Source: Alphaproteobacteria bacterium
Lineage (GTDB): Bacteria > Pseudomonadota > Alphaproteobacteria > SMXQ01
DNA: 40,939 nucleotides
Direction: 5' to 3'
Assembly (NCBI GenBank): GCA_030831315.1
Contig: JAURLI010000042.1
Coordinates: 1-40,939, forward strand
The notes under the pieces are model-generated. The model was not told the DNA's origin. It did no database searches and saw nothing but the letters and a program-made list of their open reading frames with translations. The stretch's first letter is position 1. The number at the start of each line of letters is the position of its first letter. Position numbers and translations under genes: made by a program. Below are positions 2,750-40,939 of this stretch, piece by piece.

Positions 2750-3841
2750 GTGTCCCGCATCGTGCTTGCCGTCGTCGCCGCCATCGCTGTTGCCGTAGCC
2801 GGGTATTTTGTGTTCCGGCCGGGCGGCGGTCCGGGGCAGCGCGGGCCGGGCAGCTTTGCCATCCCGGTGGAAACGGCCAAGCCACGCGTCGAGACGGTCC
2901 TGCGCACGGTGCCGGCGGTCGGCACCCTGCGCTCGGCCGAAAGCGTCGTCATCCGGCCCGAAGTCGCGGGCCGCGTCGCGGCCATCGCCTTCAAGGAAGG
3001 TGCCGCCGTGAAAAAAGGCGACGTGCTGGTGACGCTGGACGACGACATCGCCCGTTCGCAGATGAACGAGGCGCGGGCCAGCCTCAACCTCAGCAAGGCC
3101 AATTTCGAGCGCGCCGCCAAGCTGTTCAAGCAGAAGGTCGGCAGCGCCCAGGCGCGCGACCAGGCGCTGGCCAATATGCGCGTCGACGAGGCCCGCGTGG
3201 CCGTCGCCCGCGCCCAGTTCGAAAAGACCGTCATCCGCGCCCCCTTCGACGGCATCATCGGCCTGAAGAAGGTGAGCCCCGGCGATTACCTGACCGTCGG
3301 CGCCGAGATCGTCAATCTCGAGCACATCGACACATTGAAGGTCGATTTCGCGGTGCCCGAACTGGCGCTGCCGGAAATCGCCGTCGGCCAGGCCGTGACC
3401 GTCACCGCCGATGCCCTGCCCGGGCGCAGCTTCGAAGGAAAGGTCTATGCCATCGATCCGCTGATCGAGGCCAAGGGCCGGTCCATCGCCGTGCGCGCCC
3501 ATATCGATAACGCCAAGCGTGACCTACGCCCCGGCCTGTTCGTGCGCATCGCGCTGGTTACCGCGCGCATCGAGGGCGCCCTGCTGGTCCCCGAAGAAGC
3601 AATCGTGCCGGTCGGCCGCGACCGCTTCGTCTTCCGCGTCCGGGACGGCAAGGCATCAATGACGAAGGTCGAGACCGGCCTGCGCCGCAAGGGCGAGGTC
3701 CAGATCGTCAGCGGCATCGGCGCGGACGATGCGGTGGTAACCGCCGGCCAGATCAAGCTGCGCGACGGCGTGCCGGTGATGGCTGTGCCGCCCGGTGGCG
3801 CGCCCGGAAAGCCCCCCGCCGCAAATGCCAAGGGCAAGTAG
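2750..3841 (+). CDS. RND efflux periplasmic adaptor (membrane fusion protein, HlyD/AcrA type)
   Basis: This 363-residue protein links an inner-membrane RND pump to an outer-membrane channel. An uncleaved or signal-like hydrophobic N-terminus spans about residues 5-23. It is followed by a biotinyl-lipoyl-like half-motif (VIRPEVAGRVAAI), an alpha-hairpin region rich in Ala/Glu/Arg, and the second lipoyl half around FEKTVIRAPFDGIIGLKKV. Beta-barrel and membrane-proximal domains come next, and the C-terminus is Pro/Gly-rich. The GTG start at 2750 has AGGAG at 2739-2743. The stop lies 6 bp before the permease start, so the two are probably one operon. No outer-membrane factor or regulator gene lies nearby. 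The substrate cannot be inferred. Confidence 0.93.
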   Translation: MSRIVLAVVAAIAVAVAGYFVFRPGGGPGQRGPGSFAIPVETAKPRVETVLRTVPAVGTLRSAESVVIRPEVAGRVAAIAFKEGAAVKKGDVLVTLDDDIARSQMNEARASLNLSKANFERAAKLFKQKVGSAQARDQALANMRVDEARVAVARAQFEKTVIRAPFDGIIGLKKVSPGDYLTVGAEIVNLEHIDTLKVDFAVPELALPEIAVGQAVTVTADALPGRSFEGKVYAIDPLIEAKGRSIAVRAHIDNAKRDLRPGLFVRIALVTARIEGALLVPEEAIVPVGRDRFVFRVRDGKASMTKVETGLRRKGEVQIVSGIGADDAVVTAGQIKLRDGVPVMAVPPGGAPGKPPAANAKGK

Positions 3842-3847
3842 GCGGCC

Positions 3848-6800
3848 ATGAAGCTGCCCGATCTCTGCATCCGCCGGCCGGTTTTCGCCATCGTCGTCAA
3901 CCTGCTGATCCTGCTGGTCGGCGCCATCGCCTATGACCGCCTCAGCGTGCGCGAATACCCGAAAATCGACGAACCGGTGGTGACGGTGGAAACCACCTAC
4001 CGGGGCGCCAGCGCCGAAATCATCGAGACGCGGGTGACCCAGCCGCTGGAAGATTCGCTTTCGGGCATCGAGGGCATCAACTTCATGACGTCGATCTCGC
4101 GGCCCGAGAAAAGCCAGATTACCGTCACCTTCCGCCTGACCCGCGACATCGAATTCGCCGCCAACGACGTGCGCGACCGCGTCGCGCGCGTACGCGCGGC
4201 CCTGCCCGACGACATCAATGAGCCCGTCGTATCAAAGGTCGAAGCCGACGCACAGCCGCTGGTCTACCTTGCCTTTTCGTCGAGCCGTCATTCGGCTATG
4301 GAAGTGACCGACTTCGCCGACCGCGTCGTGCGCGACCGGCTGCAGAATGTCGGTGGCGTCGCCAGCGTGCGCATTTTCGGCGAGCGGCGCTATTCCATGC
4401 GCGTGTGGCTGGACCCGGCGCGCATGGCTGCCTACGGCATCGCGCCCGCAGACATCGAAAAAGCGCTGACGGCCCAGAACGTCGAAATTCCCGCCGGGCG
4501 GATCGAAAGCAGCACACGCGAATTCACGGTCGTCAACGAAAGCGACCTGCGCGGAGCAGACGAGTTCGCGGATATCGTGCTGCGCGACACCGGCGGCTTT
4601 CTCGTGCGCCTGAAGGATGTCGCAAGAATCGAGCTCGGCCCCGCCGACACCCGCGTGCGCGCCCGCTTCAAGGGCCAAAGCGCGGTGGCGATGGGCGTCA
4701 TCAAGCAATCGACAGCCAACCCGCTCGACGTTTCCAAGGGGGTACGCGAGGCGCTGCCGGAAATCACCCGCGTGCTGCCGCCGGGCATGTCGGTTGAGGT
4801 GGCCTACGATTCTTCCATCTTCATCGAACGGTCCATCAGCAACGTTTACAAGACCCTGGCCGAGGCAGTGGCCCTGGTCGTCGCCGTGATCTTCTTCTTC
4901 CTGCGCACCGGGCGGGCGACGCTCATCCCGCTGGTGACGATCCCCATATCCCTGATCGGCGCCTTCGCGCTGATGGCGGCACTGGGCTTCACCATCAACA
5001 CGCTGACCCTGCTCGCGCTTGTGCTGGCGATCGGGCTGGTGGTGGACGATGCCATCGTCATGCTGGAAAACATCTACCGGCATATCGAGGACGGCATGGA
5101 ACCGGTCGCCGCCGCCTTCAAGGGCGCGCGCGAAATCGCCTTCGCCGTGCTGGCGATGACGATCACCCTTGCCGCGGTATTCGTGCCGATGGCAACGACC
5201 GAAGGCCGCACCGGCAAGCTGTTCACGGAGTTTGCCCTGACGCTGGCGGGCGCCGTGATCGTATCGGGCTTCGTTGCCCTGACGCTGTCGCCGATGATGT
5301 GTTCGAGGCTCCTGCGCAAGAGCACCCGCCATGGTCCCGCCTACAGCGCCATAGAGGCGCGCCTCGTTCGCATGACGGAGGGCTACCGCCGCTGGTTGGA
5401 GCGCGCCCTTCGCATTCGCCCGCGCGTCGTCGCCGGAATGCTTGCCATTGCCGCGCTGGGTGGCGGCCTCCTGTTCGTGCTGCGCTCGGAACTGTCGCCG
5501 CTGGAGGATCGCGGGTATGTCGTCGCCATCCAGATCGCTCCGGAAGGCTCGTCGCTGGATTTCACCGATCGCTACGCCCGCCAGATCGAGGGGATCATCG
5601 GTTCCGTCCCCGAGGTCACCCGCTATTTCATGGTGGTGGGGTTCCCGGTGTCCAACCAGGCGATATCCTTTTCCCTGCTGAAACCCTGGAACGAGCGCGA
5701 CCGCAAGGCGCGCGATATCGTGGCCAGTATCGGGCCGCTCATGTTCGGGGTGACGGGCTCGCTTGCCTTTCCGGTCAACCCGCCGTCGCTGGGCCAGAGC
5801 CCGGTATCGAAGCCGCTGGAATTTGTCGTCCAGACCACCGGCACCTATGCCGAGTTGCAGAACATGGTGAACAAGGTCATCACCCGCGCGCAGGCGTTTC
5901 CGGGGCTCGCGAATTTCGATTCGGACCTCAAGCTCAACAAGCCGGAACTGCGCGTTACGGTCAACCGCGACAAGGCGGCCGCCGCCGGGATCGAGGTCGC
6001 CGTTATCGGCCGGGCGCTCGAAACCATGATCGGCGGCAAGCAGGTGACGCGTTTCAAGCGCGCGGGCAAGCAGTATGACGTCATCGTGCAGGTGGATGAT
6101 CCGGCCCGCAGCGCGCCCGACGACATTCGCCGCATTTATCTCCCGCTGAAAGACGGCCAGATGGTGCCGCTTGCCAATTTCGTCGATGTCTTAGAAACCG
6201 TCGCCCCGCGCGAGCTCAACCATTTCAACAAGCTGCGCGCGGCCACCATCACCGCCACCCTGCAGCCGGGCTATACGCTGGGCGACGGCCTGGCCGCGCT
6301 GACCGAGGCCGCCCGCGAAGTGCTGCCCGCGAACGCCCAGATCGACTATGCCGGCCAGTCGCGAGAATTCCGCGAATCGAGCACAAGCCTCCTAGTCAGC
6401 TTCGTGCTCGCCATTGCCTTCATCTACCTGGTGCTGGCCGCCCAGTTCGAGAGCTTTTCCGATCCGCTGATCATCCTGCTCACGGTGCCGCTTTCCATCG
6501 CGGGCGCGCTGGCGACGCTCTACGTCACCGGATCGACGATCAACGTCTACAGCCAGATCGGCCTGATCACGCTGATCGGCCTGATATCGAAACACGGCAT
6601 CCTGATCGTGGAGTTTGCCAACCAGCTACGCGATCGCGGCATGAGCGCGGCAGAGGCCGTGCGCGAGGCTTCCGTCCTGCGGCTGCGTCCGATCCTGATG
6701 ACGACGGGCGCAACCGTGCTGGGCGCATTGCCGCTTGCCATCGCCTCTGGCGCAGGCGCCGAAGCGCGCCAGACCATAGGCTGGACCATCGTCGGCGGCA

Positions 6801-37115: not shown

Positions 37116-37532
37116 TCAGCCGCGGCGCTCGATCGGGATGGAACGGCTCGTCTCGCGGCCTTGCGGGCGCACCAGGTCGATATGCAGCAGGCCCTTGTCG
37201 AGGGCCGCACCCGCCACCTCCATGCCGTCGGCAAGAACGAAGCGGCGCTGGAACGCGCGCGCGGCAATGCCGCGGTGAAGGAAGACCCGTTCCGCCGCCT
37301 CGTCGGCCTGACGGCCGGCGATGGACAGCTCACTGTTTTCGAGCGTGACGGTCAGTTCGCTCTCGTCGAAGCCTGCGACGGCAACGGTAATGCGCAGCCG
37401 GTCGGGCCCGAGGCTTTCGACATTATAGGGGGGATAGCCGTCGCCCGACGACTTGGCGATGCGTTCGAGCGCTTCCTCGAACACGTCGAAGCCCAGCAGA
37501 AAGGGCGATGAAAAACCACGTTCACGCGACAT
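37116..37532 (-). CDS. small heat-shock protein, Hsp20/alpha-crystallin (IbpA-like)
   Basis: This 138-residue holdase chaperone prevents aggregation of unfolding proteins. The N-terminus is MSRERGFSSPFLLGFDVFEE. The alpha-crystallin domain spans about 30-120 with PPYNVESLGPDRLRITVAVA, GRQADEAAERVFLHRGIAAR and the conserved AFQRRFVLADG. The C-terminal tail SRSIPIERR contains an I-P-I element that docks neighbouring subunits. The ATG at 37532 has a strong GGAGGAGGAG site, and a sigma-32-like promoter lies upstream. Confidence 0.93.
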   Translation of the reverse strand: MSRERGFSSPFLLGFDVFEEALERIAKSSGDGYPPYNVESLGPDRLRITVAVAGFDESELTVTLENSELSIAGRQADEAAERVFLHRGIAARAFQRRFVLADGMEVAGAALDKGLLHIDLVRPQGRETSRSIPIERRG

Positions 37533-37590
37533 CGGTCTCCTCCTCCGAGCGAGAGCCACGGGCGGCCCGGAACGGCACCGCCACGAAGGA

Positions 37591-37619
37591 GAGATAAGCG
37601 GAGATACCGGTTTTTCAAG
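37591..37619 (-). promoter_or_regulatory. sigma-32 (RpoH)-type heat-shock promoter for hsp20
   Basis: On the minus strand CTTGAA (plus 37614-37619) and CTTATCTC (plus 37591-37598) are separated by 15 bp, close to the alphaproteobacterial RpoH pattern CTTGAA-N-CCTATNT. The predicted leader is about 52 nt. I saw no convincing ROSE-type thermometer in that leader. Confidence 0.6.
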
Positions 37620-37640
37620 CCCCGCCGGACAGCATGGACC

Positions 37641-37878
37641 TCAGGGCTGGACGGGCTTCGGTTTCGTGCCAAGCGCGTTGAAGGCGGTGGCGAGGTCGTT
37701 GAGCTCGCTTTGCAGCTTGGCCGGATCGTTCTTCGGCAGCATGGTCACCATGCACCAGCCGTCCTCCAGACCGCCCGGGCAGCCCGAACTGGGCGACGAT
37801 GTTCAAGCAGGCGCGCAGTTCGAATGCCTGCGCTGCGCGCTCGAACGGCGATCTTGCTGCCGATGAAGCGAAAGCCAT
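37641..37878 (-). pseudogene. small frameshifted ORF, function unknown
   Basis: The region ends with a high-quality reading, LEDGWCMVTMLPKNDPAK, then LQSELNDLATAFNALGTKPK and a TGA at 37643-37641, with strong GC third-position bias. In another frame just upstream it reads MAFASSAARSPFERAAQAFE then LRACLNIVAQFGLPG. Removing one base in the CCGCCCGGG run near 37770-37780 joins the two into a 78-residue protein. I do not recognise it. The upstream part overlaps antisense the 5' end of the plus-strand ORF at 37799, so the true 5' boundary is unclear and part may be shadow coding. No clear Shine-Dalgarno precedes the ATG at 37878. Confidence 0.4.
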
Positions 37879-38569
37879 CGTGCGCACGGGCGCCGTCCTC
37901 GGCGAACCTGCGATCTGCGAGATGCAGTTCGGTGGGTTGGCCGACCTCGACCGCGCCCTTGCCGCTGAAGCGGCCGAGATCGCCGCCAAGGCGCCCAAGA
38001 TGGACAACCGGGTCGGCTCGGCCCTCGATCGCGCGCTCGGCATTCCGAGCCAGCCCGCGCAAGCGCCGGCGAAGACGCCGGCACAGGGCCAGGGCCAGGG
38101 CAAGCCCGGCTCGGGCACCGACGCGCTCGCCAATGTCATGAACCGCAAGTTCGGCGACGCCCCCGCCAAGACCAAAGCCCCAGCCGGCACGGGCGCCGGC
38201 ACGCCGCCCGCCGCATCGGGCGATGCCCTCGCCAATGCCTTCGGCAAGGTGCAGCAGAAGGACAAGGCACGCCAGCAGCAGGCCAAGGCGCTGACCGGCA
38301 CGGTGACGCAGCAGATGGCGCGCGTCGCATCCAAGTGCCATTGCTACCTGTCGGGGCGCAACTGCCCGCCGGCGCTGGCCGACCGGTCGTGGCTCTACGA
38401 CGATACGGCGCGCTACGCGTTCAACAATGCCGTGAATACGGCGCGCAACCAGTGCAGCTCGTGGACGGCGCTGCGCGTGCGCAACATTACGGAAGCCAAC
38501 AAGGCCGACGTCCTGCCCGCGAAAAAAGTCGAACTGATCCGCAACGATTTTATCAGAAATCTTTTTTAA
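37799..38569 (+). CDS. unrecognised Pro/Ala/Gln-rich protein with C-terminal Cys cluster
   Basis: 256 residues from the ATG at 37799; an alternative ATG at 37922 gives 215 and avoids overlap with the minus-strand fragment. No signal peptide is visible, so the natural 5' end may be missing. A low-complexity linker (about 85-150: PAQAPAKTPAQGQGQGK, then two DALAN-containing stretches) leads to a C-terminal domain with four Cys (SKCHCYLSGRNCPP and NTARNQCSSW) and YDDTARYAFNNAVN. Third positions are strongly G/C until the last codons. The final residues (DFIRNLF) are AT-rich and lie in the adjacent island, and the stop overlaps the island gene's end by 17 bp. The 3' end may therefore have been created by an insertion. 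Function unknown. Confidence 0.55.
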   Translation: MFKQARSSNACAARSNGDLAADEAKAIVRTGAVLGEPAICEMQFGGLADLDRALAAEAAEIAAKAPKMDNRVGSALDRALGIPSQPAQAPAKTPAQGQGQGKPGSGTDALANVMNRKFGDAPAKTKAPAGTGAGTPPAASGDALANAFGKVQQKDKARQQQAKALTGTVTQQMARVASKCHCYLSGRNCPPALADRSWLYDDTARYAFNNAVNTARNQCSSWTALRVRNITEANKADVLPAKKVELIRNDFIRNLF

Positions 38570-39944
38570 GAACTTTTGTGCCGAGGATTTCTTTCTCTTT
38601 CTTCAAAAAGTTCAGGTAAAACGAATCACAAATTTCCTTAGCGCTAGTGAACTGGCGAACGTTTTTATTCCAAGCTATTAGAACATCAAAAAGATTCAGT
38701 TTTGTACTAAGCCAATTGTAATTCTGCAGCGCCATATTTGCTTTGTTCCACAATTCTTTTTTTTCTGTCTCACCTATGTCGAGACTGAGTTTTTCTTCAA
38801 TTTCTCGCATGGCACTTTTGACTCGATCAAATTCTTTGCGCGAAATGAACTGAGCAGCTTTGTCAGAGCGTATATCGTGACAATGGCTTACTATTTGATA
38901 ATTTCTGTAGGTAAAATCTAACTTTCCCGATGGTGAGTTCGCATATTTTTCCAACTCTAATCTTGAAGCTTTAAAAGCAGCATCTCTTTTCTTCGCTTCG
39001 GCTTCTTCTATCTTTTTATTTTTTTCTGCCTCAGCTTTCTGTGATGCACGCCTCTGTGCTAGTTTTATTTGATCTTGCTTATATTTTTCTTTTGCCTCCG
39101 CAAAATTCTTGTCAGCAGCAGCAATTAAATTCAGTAATCTTTTTCTTTCATTTTGATAATTTTCGAGGAACTGTTCATTTATTGAGACGATTGCACTCAC
39201 TTTTTCAGATATACGTCCAAAATTAATTTTTTCTGTAATTTTTTGAGAGCTTTGCTGCCCCATAATAAAGAACAGTGGGGTGACCCATTTTGGGTTAATC
39301 CTTGACTGAAATGGGTCGAAATTGGGTGATCCGATAATTCCATTTCTGAACTGCGTTTTATTAATTTTTCCGCCCAAAAAGCCATTTTCTTTTGATGGAC
39401 TTACAAAAATATATAATGCAGTTGAGGCCTTAAGATGAGTTGCGCATTCAAAGAACCAGTCCGAATATCTCGGAAGAATTTGCTCGCCAAACTGTATGGC
39501 TTTGGTGGCATTTGTTGCGCTGATTTCGTTTGAAATGCCTGCTGCTTTTGCCAGAATTTGAATCGTAGCATTTGAAACCGCTCCAGAACCATCTTCTATT
39601 CCCAAGGTTGTAATTTCATCGAAGTTTTTCTTCGAGCTTTCAATTTGACGGCTTAATTCGGTCAGCATTTTTTTTGGAATACTTGTCAAAGAACGCTGAT
39701 AAATGTTTGGGAATGATTTTCCCTTTGACGTCAGGTATTCATCTATCGGCTTTAATTTAGTCTGCAAATCGACTAAACTTTTTATCGACTGCTTTGCCCT
39801 GCTATATTGCGTAGTCAATTTCTTGCTGATTTGGGATGTTCTGACCGCCTCGCAATACGCTTCGGGCGTCTGAGAACTTGACGCCTCGGAAGCTCGACCG
39901 AAAAACAATGTAGCCAGAAGAACAAGCAGAAACATCTTGTGCAT
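38553..39944 (-). CDS. unrecognised secreted coiled-coil protein of foreign base composition
   Basis: 463 residues. A signal peptide, MHKMFLLVLLATLFFGRASE, precedes a predicted cleavage near residue 23. The mature N-terminal half is helical (TPEAYCEAVRTSQISKKL; SIKSLVDLQTKLKPIDEYL), with a more globular middle (YSDWFFECATHL, ALYIFVSPSKENGFLGG). A long charged coiled coil follows at about 260-335 (EAKEKYKQDQIKLAQRR, AEKNKKIEEAEAKKRD), then a C-terminal domain with HCHDIRSDKAAQF and EICDSFYLNFL. The mature part has several well-spaced Cys, so disulfides are possible. The ATG at 39944 was chosen (GAGG six bases upstream) over a TTG four codons earlier. I do not recognise the family. It probably acts in the periplasm or outside the cell. 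Confidence 0.8.
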   Translation of the reverse strand: MHKMFLLVLLATLFFGRASEASSSQTPEAYCEAVRTSQISKKLTTQYSRAKQSIKSLVDLQTKLKPIDEYLTSKGKSFPNIYQRSLTSIPKKMLTELSRQIESSKKNFDEITTLGIEDGSGAVSNATIQILAKAAGISNEISATNATKAIQFGEQILPRYSDWFFECATHLKASTALYIFVSPSKENGFLGGKINKTQFRNGIIGSPNFDPFQSRINPKWVTPLFFIMGQQSSQKITEKINFGRISEKVSAIVSINEQFLENYQNERKRLLNLIAAADKNFAEAKEKYKQDQIKLAQRRASQKAEAEKNKKIEEAEAKKRDAAFKASRLELEKYANSPSGKLDFTYRNYQIVSHCHDIRSDKAAQFISRKEFDRVKSAMREIEEKLSLDIGETEKKELWNKANMALQNYNWLSTKLNLFDVLIAWNKNVRQFTSAKEICDSFYLNFLKKEKEILGTKVLKKDF

Positions 39945-39998
39945 GGATAGCCTCAATTGAAAATTAGGCTGAAATTTTTAGCATCTAAGATAAGGTTC

Positions 39999-40028
39999 AT
40001 TTTCTTACTGTCCATTTCTGCCTGTCAA
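39999..40028 (-). promoter_or_regulatory. candidate promoter of the island gene
   Basis: On the minus strand a perfect -35, TTGACA (plus 40023-40028), is followed after 18 bp by GAAAAT (plus 39999-40004), a 4/6 match to the -10 consensus. The leader would be about 50 nt. Confidence 0.42.
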
Positions 40029-40232
40029 AGGAATTCCTAAATTTTTGTGTGCACGGGAAGTAGAAAAAAATCAAGCACGAGGCGCCGGTTATTGGGGGGA
40101 GCCCCATTGGGGCCTATTGTATTCTGGCCCTTCCGGCGGTCGGTGGCTTGTTGTGACGCGAGATTGATCCAAAGCCGAGGGACAGCCGTAGAAGGGAAGA
40201 TCTTTCCAGATCAGTTTCCTCCCTGACTTCAG

Positions 40233-40263
40233 CCCCGGCATCAAAAGTGCCGGGGGTTTTTTT
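40233..40263 (+). terminator. strong orphan intrinsic terminator, plus strand
   Basis: CCCCGGCA (40233-40240) and TGCCGGGG (40248-40255) form a perfect 8-bp stem with a 7-base loop, followed by seven T. No plus-strand gene ends near it; the nearest plus-strand stop is at 38569. It may end an unannotated small RNA beginning somewhere after about 40030. Confidence 0.85.
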
Positions 40264-40360
40264 ATGGCGAGCGGCGTCGTGCGATCCGTGACGACACAGT
40301 CGTTTGATAGGCCCGCCTCGTTCGTACTTGGGTCGTGCATATGGCGGCTTTGGCAAAGAA

Positions 40361-40392
40361 CAAGGGCTTAGCGACAACTCGCTAAGCCCTTG
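40361..40392 (-). terminator. hairpin terminator downstream of tRNA-Ala
   Basis: A perfect 14-bp stem (CAAGGGCTTAGCGA / TCGCTAAGCCCTTG) has a 4-base loop. On the minus strand it follows the tRNA-Ala 3' end by about 17 bases and is followed by TTCTTTG. On the plus strand it is followed by ATTTTAAT, so it could act in both directions. Confidence 0.65.
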
Positions 40393-40409
40393 ATTTTAAT
40401 GCCTTAAAC

Positions 40410-40485
40410 TGGTGGAGCCGAGGGGAATCGAACCCCTGACCTCGTGAATGCCATTCACGCGCTCTCCCAACTGAGCTACGGCCCC
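40410..40485 (-). tRNA. tRNA-Ala (anticodon GGC)
   Basis: The acceptor stem GGGGCCG/CGGCTCC has one G-T pair. It is followed by the D-arm TAGCTCAGTTGGGAGAGC, then the anticodon stem-loop CGTGAATGGCATTCACG with GGC, and a T-arm with GGTTCGATTCC. Discriminator A and encoded CCA (plus 40410-40412 reads TGG) complete the 76 nt. It decodes GCC and GCU. Confidence 0.97.
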
Positions 40486-40569: not shown

Positions 40570-40662
40570 GGAAAAAATCGGCGCTCCCGCAAGGACCGCT
40601 GAAACCAGCAGATTGGTCGGAAAACGGGGAATAAGGGGAGGGTCAGGCGAGGAACAGGCGCC

Positions 40663-40939
40663 TCAGGCGTCCTTTTCCCCGTCCATGTTCTCCATCACTT
40701 CGGAAACGTCGTCATCGTCGCCACCGAGATCGGAGGCGTCCTCCATGACATCGTCGTCTTCGTCGTCATCATCATCGTCGTCGTCGATGTCGACGTCTTC
40801 GATGTCGATATCCTCGTCGTCGATATCGTCATCCGCGACTGCCTTCTTTGGCGCTGCTTTCTTTGGCGCTGCCTCGGGCTTCGGTTCCGCCTTGGGCGCG
40901 CGCTTGGGCTTCGCCGGCTGGGCCACGAAAGCGGTGCCG
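40663..40939 (-). CDS. FYDLN_acid / TIGR02300 family protein, C-terminal part (cut by window edge)
   Basis: Only the C-terminal 91 residues are visible; the frame runs off the right edge, and GTAFVAQPAKPKRAPK is consistent with the end of the family's CPKCGT-x-F zinc-ribbon-like motif. A Lys/Pro/Ala-rich linker follows, then a very acidic tail (a run of eight Asp plus many Asp/Glu), ending VSEVMENMDGEKDA. The DNA for the tail is a GTC/ATC-type simple repeat around 40745-40800. The GTG about five codons into the visible frame is probably internal. Function is unknown; the family is alphaproteobacterial and commonly near tRNA-Ala and aroA. Confidence 0.75.
   Translation of the reverse strand, partial: GTAFVAQPAKPKRAPKAEPKPEAAPKKAAPKKAVADDDIDDEDIDIEDVDIDDDDDDDDEDDDVMEDASDLGGDDDDVSEVMENMDGEKDA

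What the first reader, a model, noticed from the sequence alone, without database searches (positions are those of the whole stretch)
38545..40085. AT-rich island carrying a single unknown secreted coiled-coil protein
It is the only segment of foreign composition, lies close to tRNA-Ala, and brings one complete gene with its own promoter but no mobility genes. The protein has a signal peptide, a long charged coiled coil and several Cys. It might be an anti-phage, toxin-like, surface or envelope-stress factor; nothing in the sequence decides. It is the best candidate for an undescribed system here.
Basis: partly seen in the sequence, partly recalled or inferred. Interest (0 to 1): 0.6.

Follow-up and report, generated by a model that had tools for sequence, protein, structure and literature searches.

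The report
Orphan exported protein at tRNA hotspot
A bacterium carries, beside a tRNA gene where its relatives carry nothing or quite different genes, one AT-rich gene for an exported helical protein with no detectable relative anywhere searched; this is an ordinary kind of accessory island, though the protein is unknown and a small-RNA-like repeat sits next to it.

Summary
Window 38545-40085 is the only AT-rich stretch (about 37% GC against about 65%) and carries one genuine gene, 38553-39944 (-), 463 aa. It has a Sec signal peptide, four Cys in the mature part and a long charged helix. No relative was found in Pfam, NCBIfam, PHROGs, PADLOC, PDB, phages, plasmids, IMG/VR or GTDB contigs, or in the whole genomes searched.
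Comparison with family genomes settles the locus. The block rpoN-ptsN-DUF1150-(hsp20)-tRNA-Ala(GGC)-FYDLN-aroA is conserved. The slot before tRNA-Ala is empty (284-310 bp) in three relatives and holds different genes in the others. In the same-genus relative a serine recombinase sits beside tRNA-Ala. So this is acquired cargo at a variable tRNA hotspot, without its mobility genes.
Function is not decided. Most likely it is a Sec-exported periplasmic or envelope helical spacer protein (inference).
A further part was missed: 40126-40267 is repeated (85%) once elsewhere in the genome, also upstream of an AT-rich exported orphan. It resembles the alphaproteobacterial alphaR8/mmgR sRNA: exact UUUCCUCCCU, upstream hairpin, terminator. 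It scores below Rfam's cut-off.
Kind: known (orphan cargo in a tRNA-adjacent island). Interest is low to moderate.

The parts
38553..39944 (-). orphan gene, 463 aa: signal peptide (about residues 1-22), helical N-terminal part, charged helix about 241-335, C-terminal helical part; Cys 31, 167, 355, 439
   Evidence: no family or homologue
38545..40085 (.). AT-rich segment (about 37% GC in a 65% GC contig)
39999..40028 (-). sigma-70-like promoter match (TTGACA, 18 nt, GAAAAT) ahead of the orphan gene; GAGG Shine-Dalgarno-like sequence just before ATG 39944
   Evidence: consensus match only; sequence
37799..38569 (+). GC-rich (host-like codon use) orphan gene, 256 aa, convergent with and overlapping the orphan gene by 17 bp; its last codons lie in AT-rich DNA
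   Evidence: no homologue in 10 family or 374 class genomes or plasmids
40126..40267 (+). element present twice in the genome (85% identical copy at contig C52:2761-2904, also upstream of an AT-rich exported orphan gene); alphaR8/mmgR-like sRNA candidate
40199..40263 (+). core of the sRNA candidate: weak hairpin GATCT/AGATC 40199-40212, TTTCCTCCCT 40215-40224, terminator stem 40233-40255 with T run
   Evidence: features as described in PMC12559287
40361..40392 (.). perfect 14-bp-stem hairpin, likely two-way terminator between the island and tRNA-Ala
   Evidence: z -6.8
40410..40485 (-). tRNA-Ala (GGC); its 3' side faces the variable slot
37116..37559 (-). hsp20, conserved left border of the slot
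40663..40939 (-). FYDLN-acid-type protein (cut by the contig end), conserved right border; aroA follows in relatives and on contig C63

Best explanation
The island is horizontally acquired cargo lodged in a variable slot on the 3' side of tRNA-Ala(GGC), between the conserved hsp20/DUF1150 and FYDLN/aroA genes. What is left is one AT-rich gene, without the recombinase that brought it. Its product is exported by Sec, its signal is cleaved about after ASEA, and it works outside the cytoplasm. Helical parts that probably carry disulfides (Cys 31, 167, 355, 439) are held apart by a charged helix of about 95 residues. The most likely role is that of a periplasmic or envelope spacer or scaffold whose end domains bind envelope or extracellular partners. 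Shown: composition, ORF, absence of homologues, empty and differently filled sites in relatives. Inferred: horizontal origin of this particular gene, export, disulfides, spacer role.
For: Conserved block with the slot empty in G005 (DUF1150 to tRNA 310 bp), G002 (290 bp) and G006 (284 bp). The slot is filled with an acyltransferase and an epimerase in G003 (Pfam), RTX-repeat and PDZ-trypsin genes in G007 (Pfam), and other exported proteins in G004, G008 and G009 (own ORF reading). In same-genus G001 a serine recombinase lies about 185 bp from tRNA-Ala. GC 0.37 and GC3 0.36 against 0.83 in the neighbouring gene. No homologue at family, class or phylum level. Signal peptide, Cys and charged helix; all-helical model with the long helix its best-scored part, pLDDT up to 77 there but 45 overall; weak TolA-like coiled-coil resemblance only (E 0.037).
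Against: No attachment-site duplication of the tRNA 3' end was found in the window, so tRNA-targeted integration is not shown. The single-sequence model has pTM 0.25 and no PDB match below E 1.6, so the spacer role rests on sequence features. An orphan can also arise natively.
Confidence: 0.5

Rival explanations
1. Phage- or satellite-derived accessory gene (moron type): an exported envelope protein that shields its host from other phages or supports a vanished prophage.
For: The same-genus relative has a serine recombinase at the same tRNA and a ParB-like gene on the other contig side. The genome's second copy of the repeat lies on C52 in a stretch with a phage-type protein (phrog_4756, E 1e-22) and another AT-rich exported orphan.
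Against: No match in 50,697 phage records, IMG/VR seeds, PHROGs or PADLOC; no phage gene in the island itself.
Confidence: 0.2
2. The alphaR8-like sRNA candidate and the orphan gene form one unit: the sRNA controls the exported protein post-transcriptionally, and such pairs move together.
For: Both genomic copies of the repeat lie upstream of an AT-rich exported orphan. Only 1.9% of a 385-kb sample lies within 500 bp of such AT-rich DNA. UUUCCUCCCU can pair with a GAGG-type ribosome site, and both orphans have one.
Against: Two cases only, chosen after the fact. The leaders of the two orphans are not significantly alike (16 of 300 shuffles as good). The two proteins are unrelated. A family-built model does not single out the window copy (E 0.29).
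Confidence: 0.1
3. Native gene that evolved too fast to be recognised, or arose de novo in AT-rich intergenic DNA.
For: No homologue anywhere; the neighbour 37799-38569 is an orphan too, with host-like codon use.
Against: Long 463-codon gene of sharply foreign composition; slot empty in three relatives and otherwise filled with unrelated genes.
Confidence: 0.12
4. Secreted toxin or contact-dependent effector.
For: Exported, disulfide-capable, lone accessory gene.
Against: No secretion or maturation genes beside it, no immunity candidate, no toxin family match.
Confidence: 0.06

Closest known systems
tRNA-adjacent variable genomic islands (integration hotspots)
   Same: conserved borders, tRNA 3' side, slot empty or holding different cargo in relatives, a recombinase at the same tRNA in the same-genus genome
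   Different: no recombinase and no detectable tRNA-end repeat in this copy
alphaR8 / MmgR (Rfam RF00519 suhB) sRNA family
   Same: full-length model match 32.6 bits, exact UUUCCUCCCU, upstream hairpin, terminator (PMC12559287)
   Different: below the 41-bit gathering score; canonical copies in most family genomes score 47-67 bits and mostly lie in loci of normal GC
TolA-like charged periplasmic helix (NF007065)
   Same: long Ala/Lys/Glu-rich helix (E 0.037, residues 275-330)
   Different: far below the cut-off (13 of 213 bits), signal peptide rather than an evident membrane anchor, extra Cys-bearing parts

Membership tests
tRNA-adjacent genomic island | foreign base composition | tested here: met
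tRNA-adjacent genomic island | adjacent to a tRNA gene, with conserved borders and an empty site in relatives | tested here: met
tRNA-adjacent genomic island | direct repeat of the tRNA 3' end at the far border | tested here: not met
tRNA-adjacent genomic island | integrase or recombinase gene | tested here: not met
   none seen in the slot here; present at the same tRNA in G001
alphaR8/mmgR sRNA (RF00519) | internal UUUCCUCCCU | tested here: met
   40215-40224
alphaR8/mmgR sRNA (RF00519) | weak hairpin upstream and Rho-independent terminator downstream | tested here: met
alphaR8/mmgR sRNA (RF00519) | Rfam gathering score (41 bits) | tested here: not met
   32.6 bits
alphaR8/mmgR sRNA (RF00519) | match to a model built from this family's own copies | tested here: inconclusive
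   15.9 bits, E 0.29 in 444 kb
alphaR8/mmgR sRNA (RF00519) | transcription as a small RNA | not testable with these tools
   needs RNA-seq or Northern blot
TolA | curated NCBIfam score | tested here: not met
   13 of 213 bits
known anti-phage defence proteins (PADLOC-DB) | profile match | tested here: not met

The most novel reading that the evidence does not exclude
An alphaR8-type sRNA gene travels with AT-rich exported orphan genes as a small mobile unit (two copies here, at or near tRNA slots), the sRNA regulating whatever exported protein it lands beside.
Probability: 0.06. Interest if true: 0.6.

Novelty: new member of a known kind. Interest (0 to 1): 0.25.

Why it matters
It defines a tRNA-Ala(GGC) slot in this family where many genomes carry different, often exported, cargo, and it puts a family-less exported protein on record. 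If the link with the sRNA-like repeat held in more genomes, it would be an unusual case of a regulatory RNA gene spreading with its target genes.

Tried and rejected
Homology by Pfam, NCBIfam, PHROGs, PADLOC and PDB, and by tblastn in phages and plasmids: nothing usable. Weak class-level hits (E 5e-4 to 0.5) were looked at in part. They are short and low-identity, many in frames with stops, the strongest full-protein one lying on the coiled coil. The best-looking one, G201 with a 465-aa frame, is a zinc protease by eye. A remembered C-terminal motif (Y..Y..V..C...R...IS..E) was sought in all held loci and found only in the query, so it was dropped. Weak matches of the repeat in G284 (terminators of short repeated genes) and G148 (inside a coding region) are chance; 60 viral 15-mer hits are chance. 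Similarity of the two orphan leaders is not significant. Fold search on a pLDDT-45 model gave only noise.

Full report
Observation. The AT-rich segment 38545-40085 is real and is the only one in the window. It holds one gene, 38553-39944 (-), 463 aa. Its 474 open codons far exceed chance for that composition: the maximum was 213 in 500 Markov sequences. Codon-position GC is 0.42/0.36/0.36, against 0.65/0.53/0.83 in the neighbouring gene. The start of the gene, with the signal peptide, is less AT-rich (0.45-0.57) than the rest.

No family. Pfam, NCBIfam, PHROGs, PADLOC and PDB sequences gave nothing above noise. Nor did 50,697 phage records, 72,556 plasmid records, seed scans of IMG/VR and GTDB contigs, or whole-genome searches of 60 relatives, 385 class genomes (337 for the C-terminal part) and 398 phylum genomes. 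The seed scans only reach close relatives. The structure model from the single sequence is all helical and of low confidence (pLDDT 45, pTM 0.25), and its fold search is uninformative.

The locus. tblastn and tRNA calls on family genomes show a conserved order rpoN-ptsN-DUF1150-(hsp20)-[slot]-tRNA-Ala(GGC)-FYDLN-aroA. The slot is 284-310 bp in G006, G002 and G005. It is 2.5 kb in G003 (acyltransferase, epimerase) and 4.4 kb in G007 (exported 239-aa protein, RTX protein, PDZ-trypsin), by Pfam. It is 2.5 kb in G004 and 5.8 kb in G008, where my reading of the ORFs gives glyoxalase-like, cupin-like and exported proteins, one of them a 175-aa exported coiled-coil protein in G004; these were not run against Pfam. 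In the window it is 2.85 kb. In G001, the same genus, a serine recombinase lies beside tRNA-Ala at one contig end, and a ParB-like gene lies at the end of the hsp20 contig (own reading). This makes the slot a hotspot and the window gene acquired cargo. The island copy here has no recombinase and no copy of the tRNA end.

The border. The composition changes inside the last codons of the GC-rich gene 37799-38569, which overlaps the orphan by 17 bp. That gene too has no homologue in 10 family genomes or 374 class genomes. The part that differs from relatives is therefore about 37560-40400, wider than the AT-rich part.

The repeat. 40126-40267 occurs once more in the genome, at C52:2761-2904 (85%), upstream of another AT-rich (38% GC) exported orphan of 646 aa, near tRNA-Glu and a gene with a phage-type profile (phrog_4756). 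Rfam RF00519 (suhB/mmgR) matches 40193-40270 (+) over its full length at 32.6 bits, below its cut-off of 41. The three features given for the alphaR8 family in PMC12559287 are present: upstream hairpin, UUUCCUCCCU and terminator. A model built from ten family copies gives only 15.9 bits. I call it an sRNA candidate, not a proven member. The C52 copy has UUUCCUCCCC in place of UUUCCUCCCU and falls further below the cut-off (24.1 bits; nothing at E 0.01). Canonical copies in the G001, G003, G007, G009, G010, G004 and G002 loci lie in DNA of 57% GC or more, while both copies here lie beside AT-rich DNA. With two cases chosen after the fact this is a lead only.

Mechanism. Best supported: an exported helical protein with probable disulfides and a charged spacer helix, acting in the periplasm or at the surface, carried as lone cargo. 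The location and composition are shown; export, disulfides and spacer role are inferred from sequence.

Verdict. Ordinary in kind (orphan cargo in a tRNA-adjacent variable slot), unknown in family, with one small open question, the sRNA-like repeat.

Noticed in passing
L026 (contig C52) 1-4725: second AT-rich island near tRNA-Glu: 646-aa exported orphan (544-2484 -), Cys-rich repeat protein (161-511 -), phrog_4756-like protein (3115-4437 -, also 31% identical to a Sphingomonas plasmid protein), and the second copy of the 142-bp repeat
   Followed up: partly
window 40593-40939 and contig C63 end (L027 5700-6043): the window's end and the end of contig C63 overlap by 347 bp at only 95% identity, both carrying the FYDLN gene: strain mixture or unresolved assembly; the aroA side of the locus continues there
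   Followed up: partly
window 37799-38569: GC-rich orphan gene without relatives, its last codons in AT-rich DNA, overlapping the AT-rich orphan by 17 bp
   Followed up: partly
L019 10150-11537 and L043 2-457: same-genus genome G001: serine recombinase beside tRNA-Ala(GGC) and a ParB-like gene at the matching hsp20-side contig end, suggesting a larger integrated element in this slot
   Followed up: partly
L109 17501-19600; L119 14701-16400: further AT-rich stretches in the same genome (contigs C25 and C65), one with a TAXI/TRAP-type exported binding protein by eye
   Followed up: no
G000 versus family genomes: most family genomes have a canonical alphaR8/mmgR sRNA (47-67 bits); in this genome the best match is the divergent window copy (32.6 bits), so the canonical copy seems lost, replaced or in an assembly gap
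   Followed up: no
G001:C88, G003:C76, G007:C37, G008:C168, G009:C204, G010:C297, G004:C6: weak RF00519 matches recur within about 200-500 bp of an hsp20 paralogue in seven genomes, perhaps another RNA element
   Followed up: no
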